From Psychrobacter sp. 28M-43 (GTDB lineage: Bacteria; Pseudomonadota; Gammaproteobacteria; Pseudomonadales; Moraxellaceae): 64,000 nucleotides of DNA. This document shows, piece after piece, positions 4,696-55,887 of this stretch (position 1 is its first letter; every line of letters begins with the position of its first letter). The DNA lies in assembly GCF_014770435.1 (NCBI RefSeq), contig NZ_CP061739.1, forward strand, positions 1,302,001 through 1,366,000. The letters run 5' to 3'. The notes below the pieces were generated by a model. That model ran no database searches. It was not told where the DNA came from and saw nothing but the letters and a program-made list of their open reading frames with translations. A program made the translations under genes and the position numbers.

Positions 4696-4705
4696 AACAG
4701 TAACT

Positions 4706-5165: not shown

Positions 5166-5295
5166 AACCAATTATGAACGACTTATCTGAGTCGTTATCT
5201 TCTTATAAATTCGACTGACGTTTATTTGCTGACTGTTTTCTTATTTGAACATAAGATATGGTAATCAGTAGCGTTATGAGTCAAGTGAGGCACAC

Positions 5296-7191: not shown

Positions 7192-7235
7192 TAGCTATGC
7201 AATAAAGCCTTTTATAATAAAGCACTTATAGTATA

Positions 7236-7270
7236 AAAAGCCCGTAACGACATTTCGTTACGGGCTTTTG
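7236..7270 (+). terminator. Rho-independent terminator after mnmG
   Basis: A perfect stem AAAAGCCCGTAACGA / TCGTTACGGGCTTTT with a CATT loop. The arm itself ends in T residues, so it could work in both directions. Confidence 0.9.
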
Positions 7271-7430
7271 TTTATCAAAAAAACTGTCAGTTTTAAAAGA
7301 AAGTCACATGTAACCTTGTCCTACTTACTACTTTGTCTCTATACTAGGTCAGTAAATTTTCTTAATACTTGTTAATTTGTCTCGCTGATGTCCATATATT
7401 CATGGGCTTGTCACCGAACTGAGTCTACTT

Positions 7431-8390: not shown

Positions 8391-8454
8391 TGCAGATTTT
8401 GTACTATTTTTTAAATAAGTAAGTACTTTCGCTTTATCTAACTTTGATAGCCTT

Positions 8455-8494
8455 AAAAAAGCCCTCTTTTCAAATAAGAAAAGAGGGCTTTTTG
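8455..8494. terminator. Bidirectional terminator between convergent genes
   Basis: AAAAAAGCCCTCTTTTC pairs with GAAAAGAGGGCTTTTT around an AAATAA loop. A-run and T-run on the two sides let it serve both the permease gene and the small convergent gene. Confidence 0.92.
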
Positions 8495-8501
8495 TATTAA
8501 T

Positions 8502-8690
8502 CTAGCGTTCACTATTACGCTTGTCTTCACGGCGCTGCTTGCGCTTTGGGCTAGTACGGTAGGTCAAATAACCACCGATAGCCATAACTGCAAGAAAGGC
8601 AATGATATACATAAATATTGATGAGCCAATCATGAGCGATGCACCGATAATGGGAGTTGCTTCCATGTCAAAAATCCAGTTAAGGTTCAT
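8502..8690 (-). CDS. Small single-pass membrane protein, unknown
   Basis: A 62-aa candidate protein. One hydrophobic segment of about 20-25 residues (around GASLMIGSSIFMYIIAFLAVMAIGGYLTY) is followed by a strongly basic tail (KRKQRREDKRNSER), giving a predicted N-out/C-in topology. I chose the ATG at 8690; a TTG one codon earlier also fits. It sits immediately beside a bidirectional terminator and 24 bp downstream of the monooxygenase gene on the same strand, so it could be its cotranscribed follower. The membrane-plus-basic-tail pattern and placement favour a real gene, but no family is recognised. Confidence 0.55.
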   Translation of the reverse strand: MNLNWIFDMEATPIIGASLMIGSSIFMYIIAFLAVMAIGGYLTYRTSPKRKQRREDKRNSER

Positions 8691-8714
8691 CAATAATTAT
8701 GCAAGTGTCTCATT

Positions 8715-9716: not shown

Positions 9717-10063
9717 AAATGTTCCAGTAGTGTGTAAATTATTTTCTACTGATATGCTTATAGGTAGTGGTAGTTTCAAGTGCCGCTAATCACTGTTAAT
9801 GAATCATAACAAAGTCAGCTAACTCTGTTTTTAAACTCGCTTAACAATTACTAAGGTGTATTTATAAAGGTTGTCGTTGGTCAAAATAAGCGATAAATAA
9901 ACCGTAAGTAAGGTCATAAAAGGATTTAGCAGCATTACACTATGGCATTAAAAAAAGATGGCATCAAAAAAAGCAGGCAACCTAAGTTACCTGCTTCTCT
10001 AATTAGTCGATTATAAGATAATGATAAACTAAATAATCACTATCTTAAGAACCAAATGCAACA
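9717..10063. other. Intergenic region, monooxygenase to gcd
   Basis: 347 bp of AT-rich DNA between the monooxygenase start and the gcd stop. It contains the gcd terminator (9966-9997) and must hold the monooxygenase promoter; nothing else was recognised. Confidence 0.6.
9966..9997 (-). terminator. Rho-independent terminator after gcd
   Basis: On the minus strand, AAGCAGGTAAC pairs with GTTGCCTGCTT (one mismatch) and is followed by seven T, about 70 bases past the gcd stop. Confidence 0.85.
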
Positions 10064-39580: not shown

Positions 39581-40510
39581 ATGAATATGGCAACACAAGA
39601 TGGTAAGCTTTGGATGAATGGCACGATGATCGAACAGCCAGATGCTAAAGTTCATGTGCTTACACATAGCTTGCATTACGGTATGGCTGTGTTTGAAGGC
39701 GTGCGCGCTTACCAAACAGCGGATAATCGTACCGCTATTTTCCGCTTAAAAGAACATACCGAGCGTCTACTTGGCTCAGCCAAAATCTTCCAAATGGACG
39801 TACCTTTTGATGCTGCCACTTTAGAGCAAGCACATAAAGATGTGGTCAAGCAAAACAACTTGGCAGAAGCTTATATTCGTCCGCTCATCTGGGTAGGTGC
39901 AGAAAAACTTGGCTTGTCTTCACGTGACAACAGCATCAATGCTATGGTTGCTGCTTGGCATTGGGGTGCTTATCTTGGTGAAGAAGGCATTAAAAATGGT
40001 ATCCGTGTAAAAACGTCATCATATACGCATCACATGCCAAACGTGACTATGTGTAAGGCTAAAGCCTCTAGTAACTATCCTGTATCTATCATGGCCAACC
40101 AAGAAGTGACGCGTAATGGCTATGACGAAGCTATCTTAATGGATCCACAAGGGTTTGTATGTCAGGGCGCAGGCGAAAACTTATTCTTGGTAAAAAATGG
40201 TGAGCTACATACGCCAGACCTATCAGGTGGTGCATTAGACGGTATCACCCGCCGTACTATCTTACAGTTCGCGGCTGATCTAGGTATCAATGTCATCGAA
40301 CGCCGTATCACTCGTGATGAGTTTTACTTGGCTGACGAGATATTTATGACAGGTACCGCTGCTGAAGTCACGCCTATTCGTGAATATGACGATCGTATCA
40401 TCGGTAATGGTGGCCGCGGTGAGTTGACTGAAAAACTACAGACCTTATACTTTGATGTAGTCCATGGTCGTAATGAGAAATATATGGACTGGTTAAGCTT
40501 TATTGATTAA
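39581..40510 (+). CDS. ilvE: Branched-chain amino acid aminotransferase
   Basis: A PLP enzyme of fold type IV that makes Val, Leu and Ile from their keto acids with glutamate. The protein is 309 aa. LTHSLHYGMAVFEGVRAY near the start, the PLP-Lys region MCKAKASSNYPVS, the GAGENLFLVKNGEL segment and TGTAAEVTPI are the class signatures. AAGGACA lies upstream of the ATG. It ends at a strong terminator and marks the left border of the surface-glycan locus; aspS marks the right, as in the Acinetobacter outer-core locus. Confidence 0.97.
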   Translation: MNMATQDGKLWMNGTMIEQPDAKVHVLTHSLHYGMAVFEGVRAYQTADNRTAIFRLKEHTERLLGSAKIFQMDVPFDAATLEQAHKDVVKQNNLAEAYIRPLIWVGAEKLGLSSRDNSINAMVAAWHWGAYLGEEGIKNGIRVKTSSYTHHMPNVTMCKAKASSNYPVSIMANQEVTRNGYDEAILMDPQGFVCQGAGENLFLVKNGELHTPDLSGGALDGITRRTILQFAADLGINVIERRITRDEFYLADEIFMTGTAAEVTPIREYDDRIIGNGGRGELTEKLQTLYFDVVHGRNEKYMDWLSFID

Positions 40511-40616: not shown

Positions 40617-41453
40617 ATGCCAATAGATTCTAGTACAGACGATAATAAAAATATCAAACAAATTATTTGTATTAAATGGGGTACAAAATACGGTGCTGAT
40701 TACGCCAATAAACTATATGGTATGGTATCTCGTAATATCACCCCGCCGTTTCGTTTTGTGTGTTTTACGGATGATACGACTGATGTACGTCCAGAAATAG
40801 AATGTCAAGAACTACCACCATTAGATGTTACTATGCCAACGAATACGTTAGGAAAGTGGCCTAAATCTCGTTTGTGGGGTGAAAAGCTCGGTGATTTAAC
40901 AGGGACAGTATTATTTGTAGATTTGGACGTGATTATCGTTGATAGTCTCGATCCTTTCTTTGAATATGGCGAGCCAGATGATGTTATCTTGTCTTATAAC
41001 CCAAGCAATCCATTAGAGCGCTTGGGGCAGACCTCTTGCTTTAGATTTCAGATAGGGTCACTTGTTTCACTCCAAGAGAAGTTCAAAGCTGATCCACAGG
41101 GTATTGCTGATGAATATCGTTTTGAGCAACGTTTTGTTACCCGCAATGCACCAGGCGGTGTAAAACTATTTCCAAAAGCTTGGGTGGCACACTTTAGACG
41201 TAAATGTCGCCAACCATTTCCGCTTAACTACATCAAAGAACCGAAGATTCCTAAAGGCGCTCGCATCGTTATCTTCCCAGGTGATTTGTATCCTACGCAT
41301 GCTATTGAAGGCAGATACAATAAAAACGCCGCCAATAATGCTAAAGACCATCTAAAAAGACTTACTGAGCCTAAAAACTTGAAACGCCCATTGCGCCATT
41401 TGCGTCATTTTATCTTGCCGGTAGGATGGGTTGAGAAATATTGGAGAGAATAA
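40617..41453 (+). CDS. Glycosyltransferase, outer-core type, paralogue A
   Basis: A 278-aa predicted cytoplasmic sugar transferase. The start IICIKWGTKYGADYANKLYGMVSRNI, followed by FVCFTDDTTD, resembles nucleotide-sugar GT-A enzymes, and LFVDLDVIIVDSLDPFF supplies a DxD metal site near residue 103. The later FRRKCRQPFPLNY and RIVIFPGD are shared with the gene at 52014-52814, its clear paralogue at the far end of the locus. Acceptor and sugar are unknown. It is the first gene after ilvE and may lead an operon with the GT4, murA and murB genes, each gap being about 65-100 bp or less. Confidence 0.85.
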   Translation: MPIDSSTDDNKNIKQIICIKWGTKYGADYANKLYGMVSRNITPPFRFVCFTDDTTDVRPEIECQELPPLDVTMPTNTLGKWPKSRLWGEKLGDLTGTVLFVDLDVIIVDSLDPFFEYGEPDDVILSYNPSNPLERLGQTSCFRFQIGSLVSLQEKFKADPQGIADEYRFEQRFVTRNAPGGVKLFPKAWVAHFRRKCRQPFPLNYIKEPKIPKGARIVIFPGDLYPTHAIEGRYNKNAANNAKDHLKRLTEPKNLKRPLRHLRHFILPVGWVEKYWRE

Positions 41454-41517
41454 GTTTCAAGCTCTGAACAATACTAATGTTTCAATGAAAATAATATTAA
41501 TAGGTAAACTATAGTTC

Positions 41518-42615
41518 ATGTCTCAGATTATCAAAAAAGTAGTATTAGTTATTAATTGCTTGCAAGGTGGGGGTGCAGAGCGCTCAGTACTTACCTTAGG
41601 GCAGGGTTTTTATGAATTGGGTTATGAAGTCCATATATTAAGATTCAAACCGCTTGTAGAGTATGATCTCAATCCCAACTTGAACTGTCATGTGATTAGA
41701 TTCAAGCCTTATAAGCTAATACCGAGTAGTCAACTTCGTTATCAGTTATTTGCCGCTAAGGTTGATAGATATATATTAAGTAAAATAGGAAAACCAAATA
41801 TTATCATATCCAATCTTTATCCATCAGATAGAATTATGGTTCATAGTAAATTACCTAATCTGATTTACGTTATTAGAAATACAATTTCCAACAAGTTTGG
41901 ACTGACAAATAGTAGTAATACTGATAAAAAAGTAGAGGAGCTTCGCCGAATTTATGAGAGTAGACCTTGTATTTGCGTGTCGAAAGGAGTGGAGGATGAT
42001 TTACAGGCAAGCTTAGGTTCTTGTATCACTAGCAATACAATTTATAATGCATTTGACAAAGAGCTCATTCAACAACTAGCCAATGAATCAACTAGCAGCC
42101 AATACGATAGAATTAAGCCAAAACAATATATTCTTCATGTAGGTAGTTTTAAGCCAGAAAAAGCGCATGATGTTTTGCTGAAGGCTTATGCGAAATCCTC
42201 TATGGCATACCCTTTAGTATTACTAGGTAAGGGGAAAATGCTTGAGCAAACCCAAAAGCTGGCTCAAGACTTAGGTATTTCGGAGAAAGTTCTATTTTTA
42301 GGTTTTAATAAAAACCCTTACCCCTATATGAAACATGCCAGAGGCTTTGTTTTATCTTCAAGATCTGAAGGTTTTGTGAGGGTTATACCCGAGGCATTAG
42401 CATTGAACGTACCCGTAGTCAGCACTAACTGTAAGTCAGGACCAAGTGAAATGTTGCCGGCTAACAGCCTTGTGCCTGTAGATGATATTGACGCTTTAGC
42501 GAGTAAAATTACCCTATTAATGGCAGAGCCGAAGAGTTTTTTATTTGATTTTGACGAACAGTTTTTACCGAAAAATATTGCTCAAAAATATATTGATTAT
42601 GTAGCTTCTTCGTGA
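41518..42615 (+). CDS. GT4-family glycosyltransferase, paralogue A
   Basis: A 365-aa GT-B fold retaining glycosyltransferase. The Gly-rich NCLQGGGAERSVLTLGQGFYELGYEVHIL opens the acceptor domain; the donor domain has LHVGSFKPEKAHDVLLKAY, LVLLGKGKMLEQTQKLAQDLGI, LFLGFNKNPYPYMKHA and the catalytic EGFVRVIPEALALNVPVVST with the conserved Glu pair. It is paralogous to the gene at 49833-50990: both share ILSKIGKPNIIISNLYP / VLSQIGKPNLILANIY. The DNA looks more AT-rich than the flanking ilvE. The sugar is unknown. Confidence 0.9.
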   Translation: MSQIIKKVVLVINCLQGGGAERSVLTLGQGFYELGYEVHILRFKPLVEYDLNPNLNCHVIRFKPYKLIPSSQLRYQLFAAKVDRYILSKIGKPNIIISNLYPSDRIMVHSKLPNLIYVIRNTISNKFGLTNSSNTDKKVEELRRIYESRPCICVSKGVEDDLQASLGSCITSNTIYNAFDKELIQQLANESTSSQYDRIKPKQYILHVGSFKPEKAHDVLLKAYAKSSMAYPLVLLGKGKMLEQTQKLAQDLGISEKVLFLGFNKNPYPYMKHARGFVLSSRSEGFVRVIPEALALNVPVVSTNCKSGPSEMLPANSLVPVDDIDALASKITLLMAEPKSFLFDFDEQFLPKNIAQKYIDYVASS

Positions 42616-42712
42616 GGTTCTTTTGTACCAATTATTGAAGTTTTTAACAAATATAGATGGAATTACTGTTAGGTAAAGAACAGTCAAATTTTGAAAAAAT
42701 ACGGATTTCTTA

Positions 42713-43975
42713 ATGATTAACAATGTTTTGACAGTTTCAAAAAGTAGATTAGAGGGTGAAGTTGCGCTAGCAGGTGCTAAAAACTCAGCATTACGCTTGC
42801 TGGCGGCCAGCATATTATCTGAAAATAGTATTATTTTAGAAAACTATCCTTCGCAACTGCTAGATGCACAAATACATGTAGATATGCTGCATGCTTTAGG
42901 CAAACAAACTGAGCTTGTAAATGATGATGTCATTATTATTAGAGAAAATACCAATATAAGAACAGACTTAATATGGGATGGCCGCTCTATTAGAAATACA
43001 TTGTTGATATTAGGAGCGTTAGTGTCTCGTTTTGGAGAAGCTAAAGTTCCATTGCCAGGTGGTTGTAAGCTGGGTGAACGTAAATATGATTTGCATGTTA
43101 TGTTGCTAGAGAAACTAGGAGCAACGGTTTGGGAGGAAGGCGACTATCTATGTGCAGAAGCGAGAAGTGGTTTAATAGGAAGTGATATACATTTACCACT
43201 TCGTTCAACAGGAGCTACTGAGAACGCTATCATAGCTGGATCGTTAGCTCGTGGTACTACGCGCATTTGGAATCCACATATACGTCCAGAAATAATTGAT
43301 TTAATAACAATGCTTAATGGTATGGGCGCTCGTATTAAAGTTTTTGGACAAGAACATATCGAAATATCTGGCGTTGAGCAGTTAAACGGTATTAGGCATA
43401 GAGTTATAGCTGATAATATGGAGGCCATTACATGGCTGGCAGCAGCAGTTATTACTAAAGGCGACATAGAAATCCATGACTTTCCTTACTTGGATTTAGA
43501 AGTTGTTCTTAGTCATCTGAAAGCCGGGGGAGCAAAGCTTTACCAAGGTGAAAACTCACTTATTGTACGCGGTGGTTGCTGCTACCCGCTTGAACTAAGT
43601 ACTGGACCACACCCAGGTATAAATTCAGACGTACAGCCCATTCTAGCGGCTTGGGCTGCACAAGCTCGAGGCGAGTCGCGTATAGTAGACCTGCGTTTTC
43701 CTGGTCGTTATGGATACGCAAAAGAAATGGCTCGTATGGGAGTTGATTATGAAATATCTGGTGACATGCTAAAAATCATAGGTAAGGGTGGTGGTTTGAT
43801 AGGGGCCGAAGTGAAAGCTTTAGATCTGCGCGCTGGTATTGCCTTGACGCTATGTGGTTTGGCTGCTGAAGGAGAGACCGTTATTACTGATGCGTGGCAA
43901 ATTGGACGTGGATATGTTGATCTTATACCTAAGTTAAAATCTCTTGGCGCAAACTGTGGTGGCAGTATCGGATAA
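42713..43975 (+). CDS. MurA-type UDP-GlcNAc enolpyruvyl transferase, accessory
   Basis: A 420-aa EPSP-synthase-fold enzyme of the MurA family, which adds the enolpyruvyl group of PEP to UDP-GlcNAc. Catalytic residues are kept: Lys23-Asn24 in GAKNSAL, Arg94 in IRNTLLILGALVSRFG, the fosfomycin-target Cys118 in PGGCKLGERKYDLH, the Asp of NSDVQPIL, Arg in RGYVDL, and DLRAGIALTLCG. It is therefore likely active. The GERKYDLH sequence differs from the usual GARPVDLH. Its place inside a glycosyltransferase locus and beside murB, 6 bp apart, argues for an accessory copy. The DNA is AT-rich. Role is inferred: UDP-MurNAc for a surface glycan, or a spare wall enzyme. Confidence 0.88.
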   Translation: MINNVLTVSKSRLEGEVALAGAKNSALRLLAASILSENSIILENYPSQLLDAQIHVDMLHALGKQTELVNDDVIIIRENTNIRTDLIWDGRSIRNTLLILGALVSRFGEAKVPLPGGCKLGERKYDLHVMLLEKLGATVWEEGDYLCAEARSGLIGSDIHLPLRSTGATENAIIAGSLARGTTRIWNPHIRPEIIDLITMLNGMGARIKVFGQEHIEISGVEQLNGIRHRVIADNMEAITWLAAAVITKGDIEIHDFPYLDLEVVLSHLKAGGAKLYQGENSLIVRGGCCYPLELSTGPHPGINSDVQPILAAWAAQARGESRIVDLRFPGRYGYAKEMARMGVDYEISGDMLKIIGKGGGLIGAEVKALDLRAGIALTLCGLAAEGETVITDAWQIGRGYVDLIPKLKSLGANCGGSIG

Positions 43976-43981
43976 GTACAA

Positions 43982-44926
43982 ATGAATAGTTTATACAAGA
44001 AGAAAATTAATGAGATCTTCCATGAAATTGTAGAGTTTGAAGTACCTTTGTCTAAACTTAGTCAATGGAAGGTAGGTGGAAGGGCAGACGTTATTATTCG
44101 GCCAAGAAATAAAAACGAATTAATCAAAGTTCGACAATGGTTGTACTTGAATGGTATAAACCCCCTCATAATAGGTAATACTACAAATTTACTATTCTCT
44201 GATGACGATATACACGTTGTTATTGTACAAATAGGAACTAGTTTTTCAAAAGTAGCAGTGAATGGCTTAGAGATCGTTGCTGAGCCTGGTATATGGGTAC
44301 CCAGTCTGGCTAGACTGGCTATGCAAACAAGCCTATCAGGAATTGAACATATTTGTGGTATACCTGGCACACTTGGCGGCCTTGTTGTCATGAATGGTGG
44401 TAGTCAAAGAAAAGGTATTGGTAGTGTAGTAGCCTATGTAGAAACTATTGATAACCAAGGTAATATAAAACGTTATACCAACCCACAATGCAAGTTTTCC
44501 TATCGCCAATCTATTTTTCAGAATGGAGATGAGATCGTCGTTGAAGTTGGATTGAAGCTTAGTAATAAGCGTGATAAAGGTGATATACGTCGAGAGATGC
44601 TAGAGATACTTCGTTCACGTCGAAACAAGTTTCCGAGAAAGCAGCCAAATTGTGGCTCAGTATTTGTTAGTAACCCTGATATGTATGAAGATTATGGACC
44701 ACCAGGTAAAATTATTGAAGCATTGGGATTCAAAGGCCTGAGCCAAGGTAACGCACAAATATCAGAACAGCATGCTAATTTCATTATAAATAAAGGTAGT
44801 GCGAAATCTAAAGATATTTTGTATCTCATCAATATTGTCAAAGAGACTGTATACAATAGAACAGGATATAATATGGTTGTCGAAGCAAAATTGGTCACTT
44901 CTAACGGAGAAATTATCAGTATTTAG
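43982..44926 (+). CDS. MurB-type UDP-GlcNAc-enolpyruvate reductase, accessory
   Basis: A 314-aa FAD-dependent reductase that turns the MurA product into UDP-MurNAc using NADPH. FAD-binding QWKVGGRADVIIRPRNKNEL and GNTTNLLF, GIPGTLGGLVVMNGGS, Arg175 in FSYRQSIF, the proton-donor Ser226 in NCGSVF and Glu301 in VVEAKLV are in place. The absence of the E. coli-type Tyr loop and the compact C-terminus mark it as the short (type II) MurB class, common in Gram-positive and other lineages rather than the long E. coli type. It follows murA after only 6 bp, and four sampled 60-base lines gave roughly 25-42% GC, lower than neighbours such as the acyl-CoA dehydrogenase. Confidence 0.88.
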   Translation: MNSLYKKKINEIFHEIVEFEVPLSKLSQWKVGGRADVIIRPRNKNELIKVRQWLYLNGINPLIIGNTTNLLFSDDDIHVVIVQIGTSFSKVAVNGLEIVAEPGIWVPSLARLAMQTSLSGIEHICGIPGTLGGLVVMNGGSQRKGIGSVVAYVETIDNQGNIKRYTNPQCKFSYRQSIFQNGDEIVVEVGLKLSNKRDKGDIRREMLEILRSRRNKFPRKQPNCGSVFVSNPDMYEDYGPPGKIIEALGFKGLSQGNAQISEQHANFIINKGSAKSKDILYLINIVKETVYNRTGYNMVVEAKLVTSNGEIISI

Positions 44927-45001
44927 TTCTACCAAAGCTAATCTAAATGATATTTAATGAACTTCATTAATAGTTTATATCCCTTGAGCCGACAGCAACT
45001 A

Positions 45002-46225
45002 TCAACCTACCACTGCCTTTAGCTTATGTCTAAAAGACTTTGATCGTTGCTTAAAATGTAGCTTCATATTATGAAGCAGTAACATAAGAAAGTTCCATCT
45101 CGAAATAGCTATTATGTTTGGACTATTATCATAGATTTCAAGTACTTTTCTAGCTCCTACCTCGACATTAAAATCTGAGTTGAAGGTCTCATATCCAAAG
45201 GCGTTTAGCTTATGTCTATAGGCACTGTCTGTTATTAAGCTCAAAATATTGCTTGGATCGCAGTATCCGCTTAATTGTTCGGGCAGTATGGTTCTTTCTG
45301 AGAAATTATCCTGCATGGCATAAGTAGCAGTTTTTTCATTGAACAAGCATGGATAATCGAAATTAGAAACGGGAAATAGTAGTATCTTGCCGGCGGATAA
45401 GGCTTCCATAGCGCCGCGACCAGTACCAACTGCCGCATCACAAGACCATAATAATTCAGATGCTTGTGATGTGTAGTCGCTATCAGAATAGATAGATAAT
45501 GATACATTTAGCTGTTCTGCATAAACTCTCAACTTTTCCGTAACTTCTCCTGACTCTTCATAACCAATAAAGCTCAGGCGTATAGGAAAATCTTTACTTT
45601 GAATGTGTGAGCAAAACTTAATGGTATCTGTCAATGTTTTGAAATAATAACTGCCAATTCTACCTATTTTTAGAACGTTAAAAGCGTGCTCATTGCGAAT
45701 TTTGTGGATTTGATATTGTCTATTTTCTTCATATAATGCAGGTTTTACTCTATTAGGAATAAGGTGGACATTTTGGTAGTTGTTTTTTTGTTTGGAAAAG
45801 TAGTCATAGTCTTTTTTATGAAAAACTATTAAAGAATTTACTTTAGGGTAAAACTTTTTTGGCACTCTTCCCCCACATTTTGTAAGTATGAATGAGGTAT
45901 TCGTCATTTTCGCAATATGTGCACCAATGTATGTAGACTTTGCATCATAAGCGTGAACAGCAGTGAGCTCAGATAAATATTTCAATTCTTTGAGCTTAAT
46001 AATAACGTTTTTTACGCCCTTTTGTTGTTTATGTAATTCGGTAGAAACAGAATGAACATTTTGCATGCCCAATAATGCCGCTGGTAATGAAGTACTATCG
46101 CCCATTACAACGGTTACGATTTTTCTATTTTGAGCTATAGTTTCAGCCATTTGTCTCAAGGAGTAATAGTGCCCGCCACGTCCAGTGTTGAAACCTGAAT
46201 AGTTTGAAATCAAAAATAAAATCAT
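45002..46225 (-). CDS. GT4-like glycosyltransferase
   Basis: A 407-aa predicted glycosyltransferase. The N-terminus MILFLISNYSGFNTGRGGHYYSLRQMAETIA fits the GT-B acceptor domain, and the donor half contains VLKIGRIGSYYFKTL, IRLSFIGYEESGE and AAVGTGRGAMEALSAGKILLFPVSNFD, a divergent form of the GT4 EAL/AxG region. GAGGAG precedes the ATG. It is the last gene of a minus-strand group ugd, epimerase, this gene, and it converges on murB with a 75-bp gap. Donor sugar is unknown; UDP-GlcA or UDP-GalA are candidates from the upstream genes, by inference. Confidence 0.8.
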   Translation of the reverse strand: MILFLISNYSGFNTGRGGHYYSLRQMAETIAQNRKIVTVVMGDSTSLPAALLGMQNVHSVSTELHKQQKGVKNVIIKLKELKYLSELTAVHAYDAKSTYIGAHIAKMTNTSFILTKCGGRVPKKFYPKVNSLIVFHKKDYDYFSKQKNNYQNVHLIPNRVKPALYEENRQYQIHKIRNEHAFNVLKIGRIGSYYFKTLTDTIKFCSHIQSKDFPIRLSFIGYEESGEVTEKLRVYAEQLNVSLSIYSDSDYTSQASELLWSCDAAVGTGRGAMEALSAGKILLFPVSNFDYPCLFNEKTATYAMQDNFSERTILPEQLSGYCDPSNILSLITDSAYRHKLNAFGYETFNSDFNVEVGARKVLEIYDNSPNIIAISRWNFLMLLLHNMKLHFKQRSKSFRHKLKAVVG

Positions 46226-46294
46226 ATACTACTCCTCAGTAGTGGACATTCAAAGTAACTGTGCAGTTTATCTAAAAAAATATACATATGAATA

Positions 46295-47305
46295 TTAGAT
46301 ATAATACTTTTTATACCAATCGACAAACTTTGTGATTCCATCTTCGATACTGGTATCAGGTTTGAAATCAATATCATCTACTAGCTCGTCTATATCTGCA
46401 TAAGTAATAGGCACATCACCTGCTTGCATCGGCAATAAATTCTCTTGCGCTTTTTTGCCACAAGCGCTTTCGATGGCAGTGATAAAACGGCGTAAAGTTA
46501 CTGGTTGATTATTGCCAATGTTATATATTTTATAAGGGGCGGTCGCTGTAGTGATAGTAGAGTATTGAGGAGAGGGGGCTTTATCCATTATCCGAATGAT
46601 ACCTTTTACAATATCATCAATGTAGGTAAAGTCACGCTGCATATCACCATTATTGAAGACATTGATTGGCTCACCAGCTAGAATTTTTTTGGTAAAAGAA
46701 AAATAGGCCATATCAGGTCGACCATAAGGACCGTAAACGGTAAAAAACCTTAATCCTGTCGTAGGGATATTATATAAATGGCTGTAGCTATGTGCCATGA
46801 GCTCGTTTGATTTTTTGGTAGCCGCATATAAGCTAATAGGAAAATCAACACAATCAGCAGTGGTAAATGGCTGTTTTATATTCATACCGTAGACCGAGCT
46901 AGAGCTGGCATAGATTAAATGCTTGATATCATGATGGCGGCAACCCTCAAGTATATTAACAAAGCCAACCACATTTGAATCAATATATGCATTCGGATTT
47001 TCGATAGAGTAGCGGACACCTGCTTGGGCACCTAAATTAATGACAATATCGAATTGATAGGTAGAAAAAAGATCAGACATAGCTTCGCGATCAGCAAGGT
47101 CTAGCTTAATGAACGTAAAGTATTCTGGTTCTGATATTTCGTTTAGTAGTGTTAAGCGATCTTCTTTTAAGCTCACGTCATAGTAGTCGTTGATGTTATC
47201 AATACCAACGATATAATTATTGCTATCAGGTAGCTCTATTTCTAATAGAGCTTTGATGAGATGAAAACCAATAAAACCTGCCGCACCAGTAATTAAAATA
47301 TTCAT
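46295..47305 (-). CDS. NAD-dependent epimerase, UDP-glucuronate 4-epimerase type
   Basis: A 336-aa extended SDR predicted to interconvert UDP-GlcA and UDP-GalA. The NAD motif GAAGFIGFHL lies at residues 7-16, with YASSSSVYG, the catalytic YAATK and the substrate-loop sequence RFFTVYGPYGRPDMAYFSFTKKILAGEPI, which is the usual form of the CapI/UDP-glucuronate epimerase branch; the IYNIGNNQPV region follows. The ugd stop and this ATG share bases (TAATG), so the two are translationally coupled, and UDP-Glc to UDP-GlcA to UDP-GalA is the natural pathway reading. Confidence 0.9.
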   Translation of the reverse strand: MNILITGAAGFIGFHLIKALLEIELPDSNNYIVGIDNINDYYDVSLKEDRLTLLNEISEPEYFTFIKLDLADREAMSDLFSTYQFDIVINLGAQAGVRYSIENPNAYIDSNVVGFVNILEGCRHHDIKHLIYASSSSVYGMNIKQPFTTADCVDFPISLYAATKKSNELMAHSYSHLYNIPTTGLRFFTVYGPYGRPDMAYFSFTKKILAGEPINVFNNGDMQRDFTYIDDIVKGIIRIMDKAPSPQYSTITTATAPYKIYNIGNNQPVTLRRFITAIESACGKKAQENLLPMQAGDVPITYADIDELVDDIDFKPDTSIEDGITKFVDWYKKYYI

Positions 47306-48471
47306 TAATCGCTCCCAAATAAATCACGCGTAAAGACCTTATGAGATACATCTTGTATCTCTGCAGACAATCGATTGGCAACGATGATGTCACTTATTGC
47401 CTTGAATTCTGCTAAGTCCTTGATTACTCGTGAATTAAAAAACTCTTCTTCTTCTAATACTGGTTCGTAAACAACGACTTCGATACCTTTAGCCTTAATA
47501 CGCTTCATGATGCCTTGTATGGCAGAAGCTCTAAAGTTGTCTGATCCGCTTTTCATAACCAATCGGTGTATACCTACAATTTTCGGTTTTCGTTCAATAA
47601 TTTTATCAGCGATAAAGTCTTTACGAGTTCTGTTGGAGTCGACAATGGCTTTTATCAAGTTACTTGGCACCTCATCATAATTTGCCAATAGCTGTTTGGT
47701 ATCTTTAGGCAAGCAGTAGCCACCATAGCCAAATGATGGGTTGTTATAATGATCACCAATGCGCGGGTCTAAACCAATACCTTCTATGATTTGTTTGGTT
47801 TCAAGTCCAAAGGTTTGAGCGTAAGTATCAAGCTCATTAAAATAGGCCACGCGCATTGCTAAATAAGTATTAGAAAACAGCTTGATTGCCTCAGCTTCAG
47901 TAGGCTTTACAAACAGTAGCGGCACGTCCTTTTTGATTGCGCCTTCAAGGAGTAAGTTAGCGAATAATTGAGCTCGTTCTGACTGTTCACCTACAATGAT
48001 TCGAGAAGGGTAAAGGTTGTCATGCAGCGCTTTACCTTCTCGCAAAAACTCGGGTGAAAAGATAATACGGTCAGTTGCATAACGCTCTCTAATACCCGCC
48101 GTATATCCCACTGGTACGGTGGACTTTATAATAATGGTTGCTTGTTGATTGACCAAAAGTACTTGCTCAATCACTGCTTCTACCGTTGATGTATTAAAAT
48201 AATTGGTCTTGGCGTCATAATCAGTTGGTGTCGCCACAATAATAAAATCAGAGCCTTCATAGGCTGCCGCTGCATCAAGTGTCGCAGAAAAGTTGAGATT
48301 TTTATTTGATAAAAAATCCTCAATATCTTCATCTTCAATAGGGGACTGCTGGGCATTCAATAAGTTGATTTTTTCAGGAACAATGTCAACAGCGACGACT
48401 TCGTTGTGCTGTGCTAATAGCATTGCATTTGATAAGCCTACGTAGCCTGTACCTACTACTGCTATTTTCAT
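47305..48471 (-). CDS. ugd: UDP-glucose 6-dehydrogenase
   Basis: Ugd oxidises UDP-glucose twice to UDP-glucuronate with NAD+. The protein is 388 aa, normal for the E. coli-type enzyme. [25 protein letters not shown] is the NAD site, [13 protein letters not shown] and [23 protein letters not shown] are substrate regions, and the catalytic Cys is in [16 protein letters not shown]. It lies in the middle of the glycan locus, overlapping the epimerase gene by one base, and follows the Stealth gene on the same strand after a gap of 100 bp. Confidence 0.96.
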
Positions 48472-48571: not shown

Positions 48572-49573
48572 TCAGAGAGCTGGTGTTCCCGTCACAGAAG
48601 TGGGAAGATACGCTAAAAATTTATGCTTCATAGCTCGGCTGATTTTTTTGTGTAAATCTGGTTCAAGAAGATCTAGGCTTTGGATACAACCGTACTTGAT
48701 AGATTTACCTTCTAAAGCAGTAATAAAATCATCGACACTACTTTCATTTTTTAGATAGTTGACAGAGGTATCGGGTTTTAGATTTGCTTCATCTTTTTGA
48801 ATTTTAAGATGATTCATCAAAGTTATTGGATTTACCTGCGCCACATCTCTGAATTTATATCTAATCTGCTCTGTTAGTAGCTGAGGCTGGTTTAGCAAAT
48901 AATCTTTCAATATGTTCCTATCGACGATATGCGGATAGTGATGAATTTCAAAAAATTGATCCATACCAAGTATTTTGGCGCTTAGCATTTGGGCGATAGT
49001 ATGCCTTGGTTGAATCGGTGTTCCAAACAATTTAAAGCGAGATTTTCGGAAATTAAGCTTAGCATTTAATGCCCCACTTTTACGCCAGTGGCCGTGAATG
49101 TTCAGCTTCTCGCCATCCAAAAAGTCATCTATTTTTACTGGTTGGTTAAAAAAGAAATCATCATTCATATAGATGAAGTAATCAGATAGCCCCTCAATAT
49201 TCCATATCATCGACTCAATCGATCTGGTATTAAACGTAGGCAAAAATTGCTCATAACCTAAAAATATGTCTTTATGATCAACAATGCGTATTTTATCTTC
49301 TGAGCAAATACCTTGCTTAGCAAACTCATCGATGAACGCTGGCTTTTGTTGATCTGTGACAATATATATATGACGACAAAAAGGCACATATTTGATGATC
49401 GAAGCAATATTATAATATATCTCATCGTCGCTGGCGAAACGCGTGTCAGTTATTGCGTCAGATGCCACTTCTTTAGTTGGCTTATACTGTTCTCGCTTTT
49501 GTTTGAGTATAGGGTCTGCACCATCTACCCAAGCAATGACGATGTCTAATGTATTTTCATTAGGCTGCTTCAT
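48572..49573 (-). CDS. Stealth-family sugar-phosphate transferase
   Basis: A 333-aa member of the Stealth family, which transfers hexose-1-phosphate from UDP-sugars to make phosphodiester-linked glycans (capsule SacB of Neisseria, GlcNAc-1-phosphotransferase in animals). Region 1 is IVIAWVDGADP; region 2 is FASDDEIYYNIASIIKYVPFCRHIYIVTDQQKPAF; region 3 includes YFIYMNDDFFFNQPVKIDDF; region 4 is near the HHYPHIVDR stretch. All parts needed for activity appear present. There is no capsule polymerase or exporter nearby, so a single phosphodiester-linked decoration on LOS is likelier than a polymer. Confidence 0.9.
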   Translation of the reverse strand: MKQPNENTLDIVIAWVDGADPILKQKREQYKPTKEVASDAITDTRFASDDEIYYNIASIIKYVPFCRHIYIVTDQQKPAFIDEFAKQGICSEDKIRIVDHKDIFLGYEQFLPTFNTRSIESMIWNIEGLSDYFIYMNDDFFFNQPVKIDDFLDGEKLNIHGHWRKSGALNAKLNFRKSRFKLFGTPIQPRHTIAQMLSAKILGMDQFFEIHHYPHIVDRNILKDYLLNQPQLLTEQIRYKFRDVAQVNPITLMNHLKIQKDEANLKPDTSVNYLKNESSVDDFITALEGKSIKYGCIQSLDLLEPDLHKKISRAMKHKFLAYLPTSVTGTPAL

Positions 49574-51059: not shown

Positions 51060-51917
51060 CTAGAAAGTGTCGAATAGCGATTTAGAGATAGGAGAGTGAT
51101 TGACGACAGGAACACCATGCGACTGATAGATTCTGCCGAGTAAGTTAAACGAGGGTACAATCCGCTCGTTCATGACTTTACTAAGCATACTTGGCGCACT
51201 ATTGTTTTTATTTTCATAAAACCGTGGTTGCTTACTGTTAAGCAGGTCAATACCGTACAGATGAATACTCGCTGCTTGACGCGAAAACGCTAACTGCGCC
51301 GCGACATAAGCAACGGTTCCTGCTTCCACAAATCCATGAGTAATGTTAAGAGAGACGCCGATGTCAGCCGCTTTATGATCGCTATCAATGATAAAGTTTG
51401 GATTATTGATAAAGTACGATAGCGGCATTTTTTTATTAAGTAATTTTTTCTTAAAGATAAGCTTATTAAAAGATAGCTTGTTTGACTTGACTCCCCATGG
51501 CCTATCTACTGGGTACAACACCCGCATGGCATGGTGGTACGTTTGCATAATATCAGGGTGCGTGGTGGCCATCGCTTCAAAGACAGCTAATGTTGCATAT
51601 AGAGGTTGACCCGTATAGTACTGCTGTAAAATCTTAGGTTGATGATTGATAAAGCGCGCATCACTGATGACGTAACCAGCAATATCGGTAAACTGATACT
51701 GCCCAATCAGGCTGATACTGCCATTGACAAAGATAGTAGGTGTATCTAGTAGCTCTGTTAACGGCAGCTGCTGTATAGATGGTCCTGAGGCGATAATATT
51801 GACGTCTTTTCCATGCAAGCTTTGTTCGGGTTCATTGGCATTAAACGCATTGATAATGATGAGCTCATTATCAATATTGAACCCAGCAGTAGCAGGTAAT
51901 CTTAAATATAGCGCCAT
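51060..51917 (-). CDS. DUF115/GT42-like protein, putative LOS transferase
   Basis: A 285-aa protein I place tentatively. The stretch VNIIASGPSIQQLPL near residues 38-53, followed by FVNGSISLIGQYQFTDIAGYVISDARFI, has the shape of the GPS-motif nucleotide-sugar site in sialyltransferase-type GT42 and DUF115 proteins. The C-terminal ASIHLYGIDLLNSKQPRFYENKNNSAPS also resembles such proteins, with its GxD near the end. Position in the locus supports a role in LOS synthesis. No CMP-sialic-acid genes are nearby, so sialic acid is not implied. It could instead be an uncharacterised core transferase. Confidence 0.6.
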   Translation of the reverse strand: MALYLRLPATAGFNIDNELIIINAFNANEPEQSLHGKDVNIIASGPSIQQLPLTELLDTPTIFVNGSISLIGQYQFTDIAGYVISDARFINHQPKILQQYYTGQPLYATLAVFEAMATTHPDIMQTYHHAMRVLYPVDRPWGVKSNKLSFNKLIFKKKLLNKKMPLSYFINNPNFIIDSDHKAADIGVSLNITHGFVEAGTVAYVAAQLAFSRQAASIHLYGIDLLNSKQPRFYENKNNSAPSMLSKVMNERIVPSFNLLGRIYQSHGVPVVNHSPISKSLFDTF

Positions 51918-52013: not shown

Positions 52014-52814
52014 CTATTGCCAATGGTTTTTTAACCATGGGCTTGGCTTCACATGTCGATACCATTTACCGCCACTGCCAGCAATTGCATCTGGCGGGTT
52101 AATCTCACCGTGGAAAATAACGATTTTTGCATCATCCGGCAGAGTAGGTGTGCGTACAAAGTTAAAAGGAATCGGCGCAATACATTGGTACTTAAAGCTG
52201 ACACACCATGTCTTATCCCAATACTCTAGGTGATGATGCTCACGCAAATAGTTAGAAAGGTAGGCCTGCTCGTGACGTACTTGGGTGCGAATGGTTTCAA
52301 AGTTTCGCTCAAAATTGGACAGCAAATCAGGATAGGTATTCATACCAATATTAAAGCGGTAGACGGAGCTGTTGCCAATCATGCGCCAAGGTTTTTTCCA
52401 GTCGCGGATGATGACGACACTGTCCTCATGCTCAGCTTGGTAAGTAAAAAACGCATCGATATTATCGACAATGACGATATCAATGTCTAAAAATAGGGCC
52501 ACACCTTTTAAATCATACAGCTCAGGCTTAAAGGTAGTAAGTTTCTTCCAACCACGTTCAGGACCTGCTGGTAGATCCATGTCAGGTATCGGATAACACG
52601 CAATTGCAGGGTCAATACCTGTGCTGTCATCGGTCAAGCAAACCATTTGGAAATCTAAGGTTAGATGTCGACTAACCATGTTGTAGAGACGATTGACATA
52701 TTCAGGACCATATTTGTCGCCCCATTTCATACAGATGATATAATGCTGTTCAGCAGCATTTGTATTGGTCTGATTAGGGTCTATAGATGAGGTCTTAGTT
52801 ACGTCAGATGTCAT
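52014..52814 (-). CDS. Glycosyltransferase, outer-core type, paralogue B
   Basis: A 266-aa GT-A-like enzyme. YIICMKWGDKYGPEYVNRLYNMVSRHL, MVCLTDDSTG and the DxD-bearing LFLDIDIVIVDNIDAFF mirror the gene at 40617-41453 almost motif for motif, with the same C-terminal IVIFHGE / PSPWLKNHW pattern. The two stand at opposite ends of the locus and face inward. Sugar and acceptor are unknown. It sits downstream of the lipid A acyltransferase on the same strand and may belong to that transcript. Confidence 0.85.
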   Translation of the reverse strand: MTSDVTKTSSIDPNQTNTNAAEQHYIICMKWGDKYGPEYVNRLYNMVSRHLTLDFQMVCLTDDSTGIDPAIACYPIPDMDLPAGPERGWKKLTTFKPELYDLKGVALFLDIDIVIVDNIDAFFTYQAEHEDSVVIIRDWKKPWRMIGNSSVYRFNIGMNTYPDLLSNFERNFETIRTQVRHEQAYLSNYLREHHHLEYWDKTWCVSFKYQCIAPIPFNFVRTPTLPDDAKIVIFHGEINPPDAIAGSGGKWYRHVKPSPWLKNHWQ

Positions 52815-52946: not shown

Positions 52947-53978
52947 CTAATGATTGTCGAGCTTAGCGTTATCATTTTTAACAGCACTATCGTTTTTAGC
53001 ATTGTCGATTTCAACGTTGTTATTTCGAACGCTATCGTTGATATCGCTAGCAGAAAGATTAGAAACGCTAGAATGGTGAGATTGGATAAAGGCTGCTAAA
53101 GTCTCTTTATCTTTGCGGTAAGGGTTGCCTAAGTTTGGTATACGCTTAAAACGTCGATAGCCCCACATATAATGACTGTAGTTGTCTGTAATCATACGCT
53201 CCATGGCCTGATTGAGAGCATGAGTCGCCACTTCAGCATTACGGTCATACAAGGCTGGATCATCGAGTTTGTAGCAGTAAATGTCAAAACCGCGTCCATC
53301 GGTACGGCGAATACAAGATAAGCCAACTAGCGCACATTTGGTTTTGCTCGCCAGTTTGGAGGCAAGTGTACTGGTCAATGTTTTGATACCAAAGAACGGA
53401 ACGACAACGCCGCCTGACGGCTCTGGAACGTGGTCGGGCAATACAATACTAAAACCACCTTGCTTGAGCGTTTTAAACACGGCTTTGACGCCGCTACCAT
53501 CAGTAGGTACCAAAGTGGCATTAAGTCGCGCACGTCCTTGAAGGATAAACTCGTTAGCGAATTTGCCGTCAACTGGCTTATACATAATGGTTGGCGCACC
53601 AAACTGGTTGAGCCAAGCATTCATCATCTCCCAAGTGCCGAGATGCGGTACGATAGCAAGCATGCCATTTGGATTGGCAAGACCCTCTAAAAAAATGTCT
53701 TTATTATGGACATCGCAAATCTGAGCGATACTCCACTCAGGTGGCATCGCCCAGCTTTTTATAGATTCAATACTGGTCAGACATTGATGGTAAATAATGT
53801 CTTTGGTCAATGCGCGCTTTTGCTGCTCAGATAATGTATGAGTAATCAGCGCCATATTGATCTGAATGGTACGCATGATACTTAGACTGGGTATCTTAAT
53901 GATAACCCAAGCGGCAAAACGTGCCAGCATCTGCAATACAGACAATGGCACGACTTTGAAAATATGATACGGATTCAT
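52947..53978 (-). CDS. LpxL/HtrB-family lipid A acyltransferase
   Basis: An inner-membrane acyl-ACP transferase of about 343 aa that adds a secondary acyl chain to lipid A. An N-terminal hydrophobic anchor (residues 8-30) is followed by the active-site pattern HLGTWE (HX4E, His112 and Glu117), then LPDHVPEPSGGVVVPFFG and the late MWGYRRFKRIP, all as in HtrB/LpxL. The core ends near residue 305; the remaining 35 residues are an Asn/Asp/Ser/Lys repeat-like tail. LpxL versus LpxM cannot be decided here. It lies 67 bp after aspS on the same strand. The ATG at 53978 is preferred to a GTG two codons earlier. Confidence 0.9.
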   Translation of the reverse strand: MNPYHIFKVVPLSVLQMLARFAAWVIIKIPSLSIMRTIQINMALITHTLSEQQKRALTKDIIYHQCLTSIESIKSWAMPPEWSIAQICDVHNKDIFLEGLANPNGMLAIVPHLGTWEMMNAWLNQFGAPTIMYKPVDGKFANEFILQGRARLNATLVPTDGSGVKAVFKTLKQGGFSIVLPDHVPEPSGGVVVPFFGIKTLTSTLASKLASKTKCALVGLSCIRRTDGRGFDIYCYKLDDPALYDRNAEVATHALNQAMERMITDNYSHYMWGYRRFKRIPNLGNPYRKDKETLAAFIQSHHSSVSNLSASDINDSVRNNNVEIDNAKNDSAVKNDNAKLDNH

Positions 53979-54045
53979 GACCACTCACATGGTAATGAAT
54001 CACGTAACAAGCACTGTAGACAGCAACCGCGCATCATCGAGCGAT

Positions 54046-55887
54046 TTATTCAGCAGGCTTGTTGGTATCAGCTTGTGCTTTTTCGCGCACACGGATACCA
54101 AGCTCACGTAGTTGTTTGCTATCAACGCCAGCAGGTGCTTGAGTCAATGGGCAATCAGCCGTTTTGGTTTTTGGGAAGGCGATAACGTCACGGATAGAGC
54201 TTGCGCCTACCATCAACATAATCAAACGATCCAAACCAAATGCTAGGCCGCCATGCGGTGGCGCACCGAATTTTAGAGCATCAAGTAAGAAACCAAACTT
54301 GTCTTCAGCTTCTTGCTCACCGATACCCAAGGCTTCAAGTACAGCTTGCTGCATATCATAAGTGTTGATACGTAAGCTACCACCACCAATCTCAGTACCG
54401 TTCAATACCATGTCATAAGCGATAGAAAGGGCAGACTCTGGGTTATTTTTCAACTCTTCAACTGAACCTTTAGGCTTAGTGAACGGATGATGCATCGACG
54501 TCCAACGACCATCGTCAGTCTCTTCAAACATCGGGAAGTCGGTCACCCAAAGAGGTGCCCATTCACAAGTCGTCATTTCAAGATCTAGACCGATTTTTTG
54601 ACGTAATGCACCAATCGCATCATTCACTACACTGGCTTTATCCGCACCAAAGAAAATAATATCGCCATCTTCTGCAGCAGTACGCTCGATCAAGCTCACA
54701 AGTACGTCATCAGTCATATTTTTGATGATTGGAGACTGTAGGCCAGACTCTTTGTCCACACCGTTGTTGATGCTGCTAGCGTCATTGACTTTGATATAAG
54801 CCAAACCGCGTGCGCCATAAATACCAACAAACTTGGTATAAGCATCGATTTGCTTACGGCTTAATGATGCGCCACCAGGGATGCGTAGAGCAGCCACACG
54901 ACCTTTAGGATCGTTAGCAGGGCCGGCAAATACCTTGAAGTCAACGTCTTTCATCAAATCTGCAACGTCAACCAACTTTAGAGGAATACGTAAGTCAGGC
55001 TTGTCTGATGCATAGTCACGCATTGCTTCAGCGTAAGTCATGCGTGGGAACTGCTCGAACTCAACATCCATCATGGTCTTGAACAAATGCTTGATAAGAC
55101 CTTCATTGATGTTCATGATTTCTTCTTCGTTCAAGAAAGACGTCTCAATATCCACCTGAGTAAATTCAGGCTGACGATCGGCACGTAAATCTTCATCACG
55201 GAAGCATTTAGCAATTTGATAATAACGGTCAAAACCTGACACCATCAATAATTGCTTAAATAGCTGTGGTGACTGCGGCAGGGCAAAGAAGTTACCTGGA
55301 CGGGTACGTGATGGTACAAGATAATCACGCGCACCTTCAGGCGTTGCACGAGTCAAGATAGGCGTTTCAACATCCAAGAAACCATGATCGTCTAAATAAC
55401 GACGAATCGCTGAAGTTGCCTTGGCACGGAACACCATACGCTCTTGCATTTGCGGACGACGCATATCAAGATAACGATACTTTAGACGCAAGTCTTCAGA
55501 TACAGTCGTTTTTTCGTCATTCAATGGGAATGGCGGCGTCTCAGATTTAGCCAATACTTCAATTTCTTTGCCCAATAGCTCAATCTGGCCACTGGTCATA
55601 TTATTATTTTCAGTACCTTCATAACGGCGACGTACACGGCCAGTTATCTTTAGCACGTATTCAGGACGTACAGCATCAGCTGCTGCGAAAGCTTCTGGGG
55701 TATCAGGGTCGACCACGACCTGTAAGATACCAGCGCGGTCACGCATGTCTAAGAAAATCACGCCACCGTGATCGCGACGACGATGTACCCAGCCTACGAT
55801 ACTAATGGTTTGCTCAAGCAAGCTCTCGGTTACGGCTCCGCAATACTCGTCTCGGTATTCGCTATGCGTCATAGTGCTTTGCGTCAT
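54046..55887 (-). CDS. aspS: Aspartyl-tRNA synthetase, probably non-discriminating
   Basis: A class IIb synthetase of 613 aa. The OB-fold anticodon domain opens the protein; motif 2 [23 protein letters not shown], the GAD insertion domain and motif 3 [15 protein letters not shown] are present. In the anticodon-binding loop it has [14 protein letters not shown], with His where discriminating E. coli AspRS has Leu (RRRDLGS). That His is one determinant of the relaxed Pseudomonas-type enzyme that also charges tRNA-Asn for GatCAB. The call of relaxed specificity is an inference. aspS is the right border of the glycan locus; a second ATG at 55872 is an alternative start. Confidence 0.97.

What the first reader, a model, noticed from the sequence alone, without database searches (positions are those of the whole stretch)
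42713..44926. Accessory murA-murB pair inside a surface-glycan locus
A MurA with all recognised catalytic residues and a compact type II MurB sit 6 bp apart among glycosyltransferases. Four sampled MurB lines gave 25-42% GC against about 47% for a sampled acyl-CoA dehydrogenase line. A second UDP-MurNAc source makes sense if muramic acid, or a lactyl-ether sugar, is built into LOS, with an adjacent GT as the transferase. Alternatives are a spare or fosfomycin-tolerant wall enzyme set, or a MurA homologue with a changed acceptor, as known for NikO-type enzymes. I know of no described outer-core locus with this pair.
Basis: partly seen in the sequence, partly recalled or inferred. Interest (0 to 1): 0.82.

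Follow-up and report, generated by a model that had tools for sequence, protein, structure and literature searches.

The report
Glycan-dedicated MurA–MurB pair with transferase
A Psychrobacter bacterium carries, inside the gene cluster that builds the sugar coat of its outer membrane, a second, specialised copy of the two enzymes that normally make the cell-wall sugar muramic acid, next to a likely matching sugar-attaching enzyme; related gene sets occur in surface-sugar clusters of unrelated bacteria and look like an undescribed route for putting a muramic-acid-type sugar on the cell surface.

Summary
In detail: an intact MurA (42713-43975 +) and a type II MurB (43982-44926 +) lie 6 bp apart, and the complete genome has a separate housekeeping murA and a type I murB. 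The locus lies between ilvE and aspS, the position of the Acinetobacter LOS outer-core locus. The pair sits in an exchangeable cassette: two other Psychrobacter genomes have other genes between the same flanks. This MurA belongs to a separate, uncharacterised subfamily found in several phyla. Its catalytic residues are conserved in 81 of 81, with 45 subfamily-specific positions. It sits near a co-evolving MurB in 67 of 81 loci, against 0 of 20 for housekeeping MurA. A divergent GT4-like transferase (45002-46225 -) occurs in exactly the same 3 of 105 Psychrobacter genomes. Most likely the three genes make and attach a MurNAc-type, 3-O-lactyl sugar on LOS. α-MurNAc is known in P. arcticus LOS, but the genome I take for P. 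arcticus lacks the trio, so the housekeeping pool can suffice and the trio's acceptor may differ. A spare wall set or fosfomycin tolerance is poorly supported. Product and transferase are untested.

The parts
42713..43975 (+). accessory MurA (glycan-locus subfamily), 420 aa
43982..44926 (+). accessory type II MurB, 314 aa, 6 bp after murA
   Evidence: PRK13905 and TIGR00179 over cut-off; 3tx1, 1hsk best solved relatives; MurA and MurB distances correlate, r 0.80 over 67 loci
45002..46225 (-). divergent GT-B / GT4-like glycosyltransferase, 407 aa, convergent with murB; proposed transferase of the lactyl sugar ('NamT', my label)
41518..42615 (+). GT4 glycosyltransferase upstream of murA in the same direction; part of the exchanged cassette
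   Evidence: PF00534 99 bits; best hits 53% and 51% in G002 and G042, whose slot differs
41454..46294 (.). exchangeable cassette (GT4, MurA, MurB, GT) inside the outer-core locus, GC 37.0%
   Evidence: flanks 98% and 97% (278-aa ORF) and 88% and 90% (epimerase) identical in G002 and G042, which hold here a 288-aa ORF, two GT4-like ORFs and a 255-aa ORF (those ORFs judged by reading, not scanned)
39581..40510 (+). ilvE, left boundary of the outer-core locus
   Evidence: ORF; 84-95% identical in 8 of the 10 fetched Psychrobacter regions, the other two not reaching it; boundary gene in Acinetobacter
40617..41453 (+). 278-aa protein related to the 266-aa ORF at 52014; conserved cassette flank
   Evidence: 98% and 97% identical in G002 and G042; no Pfam hit
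46295..47305 (-). NAD-dependent UDP-sugar epimerase-like SDR (perhaps UDP-GlcA 4-epimerase)
   Evidence: PF01370, PF16363; no equivalog cut-off reached; specific activity inferred
47305..48471 (-). nucleotide-sugar (UDP-glucose 6-) dehydrogenase
   Evidence: TIGR03026 340 bits over cut-off 189.8; PRK15057 663 below its cut-off 757
48572..49573 (-). Stealth-type protein (CR1, CR2)
   Evidence: PF11380, PF17101
49833..50990 (+). GT4 glycosyltransferase of the more constant part of the locus
   Evidence: PF00534; hit in 8 of 10 other Psychrobacter regions, 42-78%, none in G005 or G056 at E 1e-6
51060..51917 (-). WaaZ-like (Kdo III transferase-like) protein
   Evidence: TIGR04437 71.6 bits, below cut-off 200
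52014..52814 (-). 266-aa protein, conserved right part of the locus
   Evidence: 77-98% identical in 10 of 10 regions; no Pfam hit
52947..53984 (-). lipid A acyltransferase-like protein
   Evidence: ORF and its conserved place beside aspS in 9 of 10 regions; family name recalled, not scanned
54046..55887 (-). aspS, right boundary of the outer-core locus
   Evidence: 86-98% identical in 10 of 10 Psychrobacter genomes searched

Best explanation
The pair is a dedicated lactyl-sugar module of the LOS outer core. The accessory MurA adds enolpyruvate from PEP to the 3-OH of a UDP-HexNAc (most simply UDP-GlcNAc); the accessory MurB reduces it, giving UDP-MurNAc or a close 3-O-lactyl relative. The adjacent GT-B transferase (45002-46225), of retaining GT4-like fold, then puts this acidic sugar, probably alpha-linked, on the growing LOS core at the inner membrane. 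Shown: the genes, their separateness from the housekeeping set, the locus, the cassette exchange, the cross-phylum linkage and co-evolution, and the genus-wide co-occurrence. Inferred: the reactions, the donor used by the transferase, the linkage, and the place in LOS. A separate pair would free the coat sugar from peptidoglycan control or allow a different acceptor.
For: Separate housekeeping murA and murB. Locus bounded by ilvE and aspS with stop codons facing it, as in the A. baumannii OC locus. The slot in the genome taken as P. arcticus carries genes that read as rhamnose synthesis, matching the rhamnose in its published LOS. Cassette exchange at constant flanks. Subfamily on one branch, support 100, 81 rows. 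MurB nearby in 67 of 81 accessory loci against 0 of 20 housekeeping regions. MurA-MurB distance correlation 0.80, MurA-GT 0.54, both above all 2000 permutations. Pair and GT in the same 3 of 105 Psychrobacter genomes; in 299 Flavobacteriaceae genomes accessory MurA in 5, GT in the same 5 plus one weak case. Rubripirellula obstinata has the accessory MurA, MurB and a weak GT match but no other MurA, and no MraY or MurC over cut-off. alpha-D-MurNAc occurs in Psychrobacter LOS.
Against: The genome taken as P. arcticus 273-4 (identified only by recalled size) has MurNAc in its published LOS but no accessory MurA, MurB or GT, so the trio is not needed for LOS MurNAc. The GT is not seen at 100 bits in 46 of 81 accessory loci, some of them cut by contig ends; a GT2 family occurs in 22 loci. 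One of 299 Flavobacteriaceae genomes has a weak GT without the MurA. In the window the GT is convergent with murB, not in its operon. The 45 altered positions may mean another acceptor. No chemistry of this strain's LOS is known to me.
Confidence: 0.72

Rival explanations
1. The accessory MurA has changed its acceptor: the pair makes a lactyl ether of another nucleotide sugar (for example UDP-GalNAc, a 6-deoxy-HexNAc or a uronic-acid derivative), a sugar the housekeeping pathway cannot supply.
For: 45 positions fixed in the subfamily and rare in housekeeping MurA; some adjoin catalytic residues in sequence (N95 beside R94, N304-S305 beside D306, G331 and P330 beside R332), others (R164, T166, H189, R191, N235, W395) lie near the site by recall only. 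TIGR01072 equivalog cut-off missed. Cells with a housekeeping pathway already make UDP-MurNAc; the genome taken as P. arcticus needs no extra pair. Lactyl ethers on other sugars are known, e.g. on O-4 of glucose and of mannose (passages).
Confidence: 0.32
2. Same sugar, different control: the pair makes plain UDP-MurNAc but is insensitive to the feedback (UDP-MurNAc-bound dormant MurA) that limits the housekeeping enzyme, so LOS synthesis does not drain peptidoglycan precursors.
For: Housekeeping MurA is crystallised repeatedly with UDP-MurNAc plus a Cys-PEP adduct (entry titles), an inhibited form (interpretation recalled). Changes beside catalytic residues are subfamily-wide.
Against: No direct evidence; which residues cause the feedback was not tested here.
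Confidence: 0.3
3. A spare or fosfomycin-tolerant peptidoglycan enzyme set that happens to lie among glycosyltransferases.
For: Both enzymes look active.
Against: The fosfomycin-target Cys is kept in 81 of 81 accessory rows, while 12 of 33 aligned housekeeping rows have Asp there, so tolerance, where present, is on the housekeeping side. The recurrent neighbours across phyla are polysaccharide genes. Rubripirellula has the pair without MraY or MurC over cut-off.
Confidence: 0.06
4. The neighbouring GT is not the transferase of the lactyl sugar; the upstream GT4 (41518-42615) or another enzyme is, and the GT adds another sugar that usually accompanies it.
For: GT4a is in the murA-murB direction and in the same cassette. 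The GT is not seen in 46 of 81 accessory loci.
Against: Exact co-occurrence in 3 of 105 Psychrobacter genomes although locus type (LOS or capsule) and gene order differ; GT in 5 of 5 Flavobacteriaceae carriers (two were known carriers before, and one of these supplied a row of the GT profile).
Confidence: 0.25

Closest known systems
Housekeeping MurA/MurB of peptidoglycan synthesis
   Same: fold, catalytic residues, two-step chemistry expected
   Different: separate subfamily on its own branch, 45 subfamily-specific positions, own MurB next door, placed in surface-glycan loci
NikO (UMP enolpyruvyl transferase of nikkomycin synthesis)
   Same: MurA relative with a changed acceptor, working outside the wall (passage in PMC6801904)
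Psychrobacter arcticus 273-4 LOS with terminal alpha-D-MurNAc (Casillo 2015, PMC4515632; abstract, sections 2.4 and 4 and passages seen)
   Same: genus; MurNAc in LOS core; same ilvE-aspS slot, if G005 is this strain
   Different: G005 has no accessory murA, murB or GT of this kind
Acinetobacter baumannii OC locus (PMC3628348, PMC10936431; passages seen)
   Same: place between ilvE and aspS, stop codons facing, variable gene content
   Different: the passages I saw mention no murA or murB
MurNAc or isomuramic acid in O-antigens and capsules (Yersinia ruckeri, Proteus penneri, Vibrio vulnificus ATCC 27562; as cited in PMC4515632)
   Same: muramic-type sugar outside peptidoglycan
   Different: whether those strains have the gene set was not settled here
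GT4-type retaining glycosyltransferases MshA, BshA, WaaG
   Different: 9-16% identity in the 50 rows listed; no Pfam match

Membership tests
MurA (TIGR01072 equivalog) | curated score cut-off 392.7 bits | tested here: not met
   366.3 bits; in four of the 30 genomes the second, accessory-type match does pass
MurA subfamily in the wide sense | PRK09369 cut-off 297; catalytic Lys, Asn, Cys, Arg, Asp; MurA fold | tested here: met
MurA | transfers enolpyruvate to UDP-GlcNAc | not testable with these tools
   needs an enzyme assay
MurB type II | curated MurB cut-offs; alignment over nearly its whole length with a type II MurB of solved structure | tested here: met
   PRK13905 267.6 (cut-off 259), TIGR00179 197.3 (144.5); 1hsk aligned to residues 11-305 of 314; the type of 1hsk is recalled
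NikO-type enolpyruvyl transferase | closer to NikO than to MurA | tested here: not met
LOS outer-core (OC) locus | between ilvE and aspS with stop codons towards the locus, glycosyltransferase genes inside | tested here: met
LOS outer-core (OC) locus | product is part of the LOS core | not testable with these tools
   needs LOS analysis of the strain
Wzx/Wzy capsule locus | wza-wzb-wzc, Wzx, Wzy genes present | tested here: not met
   no such Pfam domain among 11 of the 12 proteins between ilvE and aspS (the acyltransferase-like ORF was not scanned); the P. piscatorii and P. sanguinis loci have them by reading, and their flippases by scan
GT4-like GT-B glycosyltransferase (45002-46225) | GT-B fold close to GT4 enzymes | tested here: met
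GT4-like GT-B glycosyltransferase (45002-46225) | Pfam GT domain over cut-off | tested here: not met
   no hit at 1e-3; its two Psychrobacter relatives reach Glyco_trans_4_2 just over its cut-off

The most novel reading that the evidence does not exclude
A widespread, undescribed nucleotide-sugar pathway: a MurA/MurB lineage that left peptidoglycan synthesis, makes a lactyl-ether sugar (UDP-MurNAc or a new 3-O-lactyl sugar with a changed acceptor) for capsules, exopolysaccharides and LOS, and travels between phyla with its MurB and, in part of its range, its own transferase family.
Probability: 0.65. Interest if true: 0.8.

Novelty: new variant of a known kind. Interest (0 to 1): 0.68.

Why it matters
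MurNAc is usually taken as a mark of peptidoglycan (general knowledge), although a few surface glycans contain it. A gene signature for muramic-type sugars in surface glycans would make their occurrence predictable from genomes, would explain second murA copies that records name as the cell-wall enzyme (names), and offers a natural comparison for acceptor choice and feedback in MurA, a drug target. Rubripirellula, with the pair but without MraY or MurC over cut-off, may be a clean natural case.

Tried and rejected
Rejected: these are the only copies. Rejected: NikO-like by kinship. Disfavoured: spare or fosfomycin-tolerant set. I looked for Vibrio vulnificus (MurNAc capsule in ATCC 27562): it is not named among the 120 proteins listed of 1085, and 2 of 296 unnamed Vibrionaceae genomes have the subfamily; this does not decide whether ATCC 27562 has it. 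Among plasmids 7 of 72,556 records have it, five of them Rhizobium. Literature: nine searches of a library of open-licence papers listed none that I recognised, from titles, abstract starts and the passages read, as describing a murA-murB pair in a surface-glycan locus; subscription papers were not searched. ATP-grasp genes like those near murA in the two capsule loci occur in 11 of 82 loci, not in the window, so they are not part of the core module.

Weak points: the 80 named loci are the best 80 of 133 relatives, found through two subfamily motifs, so subfamily features are biased towards them. L079 was dropped (no centre found), which leaves 81 with W and L048. Of the 14 loci without MurB, several are cut by contig ends. 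The tree was the 'quick' kind; one row (L160, Microbacterium housekeeping) has a very long branch, perhaps a wrongly read frame, and is the gap among the 34 rows; L161, labelled housekeeping, is the same gene as L110. The 20 control regions are 20 of 29 housekeeping MurA genes. The MurB and GT profiles were built from the window and its two Psychrobacter relatives. Distance correlations partly reflect shared descent. In a first gene call, 9 high-GC loci lost their MurA frame to longer overlapping frames; this was redone.
Full report
What is there. The window lies in a complete genome of one contig (3,115,700 bp). Two genomes of the same genus carry accessory MurA proteins identical to ones named Psychrobacter sanguinis (G047) and P. 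piscatorii (G042), so the genus is Psychrobacter. At 42713-43975 (+) there is a 420-aa MurA and, 6 bp on, at 43982-44926 (+), a 314-aa MurB. MurA passes PRK09369 (377.4 bits, cut-off 297) but misses the TIGR01072 equivalog cut-off (366.3 against 392.7); MurB passes two MurB models and aligns best with 3tx1, 1hsk and 4pyt over nearly its whole length.

Second copies. PF00275 finds three genes in the genome: an AroA-like one, the MurA of the window, and another MurA at C1:2775204-2776409 (-), which scores 571 bits with TIGR01072. MurB_C finds two genes; the other lies in a 385-aa frame of the longer, type I kind. The pair in the window is therefore accessory.

The locus. ilvE (39581-40510 +) and aspS (54046-55887 -) face the cluster with their stop codons. 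In Acinetobacter baumannii the outer-core locus lies between these two genes in this orientation (PMC3628348, passages), and the predicted core locus was confirmed in strain ATCC 17978 (PMC10936431, passages). Ten Psychrobacter genomes were searched for aspS and about 20 kb beyond it compared with the window. In G002 and G042 the 278-aa gene after ilvE is 98% and 97% identical and the epimerase 88% and 90%, but between them lie a 288-aa GT-like ORF, two GT4-like ORFs and a 255-aa ORF (judged by reading) in place of GT4, MurA, MurB and GT. The slot of the window is thus an exchangeable cassette (41454-46294, GC 37.0%). In G005 the slot holds genes that read as rhamnose synthesis. G005 is a single contig of 2,650,701 bases, which I recall as the size of P. 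arcticus 273-4. The published LOS of that strain contains rhamnose and a terminal alpha-D-MurNAc with (R)-lactyl, linked to O-3 of rhamnose (PMC4515632; abstract, sections 2.4 and 4 and passages seen). Its authors call it, to their knowledge, the first N-acetylmuramic acid in a core oligosaccharide.

Distribution in the genus. All 105 genomes have a MurA match, but only three (the window's, G042, G047) have one at 60% identity or more. A relative of the window's MurB appears in 10 of 105 at E 0.001; only the same three are strong (E 3e-38 or better), the other seven being weak matches in longer frames. In G042 and G047 the accessory murA and murB lie in capsule loci (wza-wzb-wzc by reading, flippases by scan), followed directly by a glycosyltransferase. 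That GT is 33% and 31% identical, over most of its length, to the GT beside murB in the window. A profile of the three finds this GT in the same 3 of 105 genomes and in no other at E 1e-8. The three loci differ in type, gene order and MurA lineage, which makes the GT a good candidate for the transferase.

Distribution beyond. The scan of named genomes found 133 relatives of the accessory MurA, of which 80 are held, in Pseudomonadota, Bacteroidota, Planctomycetota, Verrucomicrobiota, Actinomycetota and others. In a maximum-likelihood tree with 34 housekeeping rows plus the row L161, the 81 accessory rows fall on one side of a branch with SH-aLRT 100; L161 lies with them and is the same gene as L110. 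The window's MurA groups with Halovibrio and Thermomonas (99), the other two Psychrobacter with Aliidiomarina (99). TIGR01072 was run on 30 of the carrier genomes, the window's included: 29 have another MurA over the cut-off. The exception is Rubripirellula obstinata, whose best MraY and MurC scores are 58.9 (cut-off 192) and 31.7 (cut-off 335), while four other genomes run alongside all pass; there the accessory MurA, MurB and a weak GT match (103 bits) are neighbours. It is a draft genome and only these families were tested. The subfamily is patchy: 5 of 299 Flavobacteriaceae and 2 of 296 Vibrionaceae genomes sampled have it.

Neighbourhoods. MurB lies near the accessory MurA in 67 of 81 loci and the GT family (100 bits or more) in 35 of 81. 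In 20 regions (19 of 20 kb, one of 15 kb) around housekeeping MurA of carrier genomes neither occurs (0 of 20). MurA and MurB distances correlate (r 0.80, 67 loci), MurA and GT less so (r 0.54, 35 loci), each above all of 2000 permutations; shared descent contributes to this. Other recurrent neighbours, named from one representative each, are a hexapeptide acetyltransferase related to CysE/EpsC (35 loci), flippase-like proteins (31 and 24), a UDP-sugar epimerase-like SDR (29), a GT2 family (22) and UDP-sugar dehydrogenases (15 and 12): genes of polysaccharide loci. In 299 Flavobacteriaceae genomes the accessory MurA occurs in 5, the GT in those 5 and, at 177 bits, in one more without it; in the five the best GT lies within 3.4 kb of MurA. 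Two of the five (G132, G114) were known carriers and G132's GT is a row of the profile.

Reading. The pair is a dedicated source of a lactyl-ether nucleotide sugar for a surface glycan, here the LOS outer core, with the neighbouring GT as likely transferase. Why have it when UDP-MurNAc is already made? Two answers stay open: a changed acceptor, or freedom from the control of the peptidoglycan enzyme. The genome taken as P. arcticus, without the trio, suggests that the housekeeping pool can be used in principle, and so leans towards one of these answers.

Novelty. Nine searches of an open-licence library turned up no paper that I recognised as describing such a pair in a surface-glycan locus (listings, and passages of some papers). 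A 2019 review of pyruvate substitutions treats enolpyruvyl transfer for peptidoglycan and NikO in the passages I saw (PMC6801904). MurNAc in surface glycans is known chemically; the gene module is what appears new. I rate it a new variant of a known kind.

Noticed in passing
L110 (Rubripirellula obstinata, genome G126): The only MurA found in this planctomycete draft genome is the accessory one; MraY and MurC are not found over their cut-offs.
   Followed up: partly
L047:12710-13693 and L048:13637-14674: RimK-like ATP-grasp proteins near murA-murB-GT in two Psychrobacter capsule loci; relatives in 11 of 82 loci. They could attach an amino acid to the lactyl carboxyl.
   Followed up: partly
35 loci, e.g. 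L056:9433-9966: A CysE/EpsC-like hexapeptide acetyltransferase is the second most common neighbour family of the accessory MurA; possible O-acetylation of the lactyl sugar.
   Followed up: no
L187 (G005) 2325-12225: The outer-core slot of the genome taken as P. arcticus holds rhamnose-synthesis-like genes and several unassigned glycosyltransferase-like ORFs; one of them may be the MurNAc transferase of its LOS.
   Followed up: no
window 40617-41453 and 52014-52814: Two related proteins without Pfam match flank the variable part of the outer-core locus; the second is 77-98% identical in 10 of 10 genus regions compared.
   Followed up: partly
L188:11455-12222 and L196:7723-8490: A 255-aa protein, not scanned, sits in the alternative cassette of G002 and G042.
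   Followed up: no
housekeeping MurA rows: 12 of 33 aligned housekeeping MurA rows have Asp in place of the fosfomycin-target Cys, while accessory copies keep Cys in 81 of 81.
   Followed up: partly
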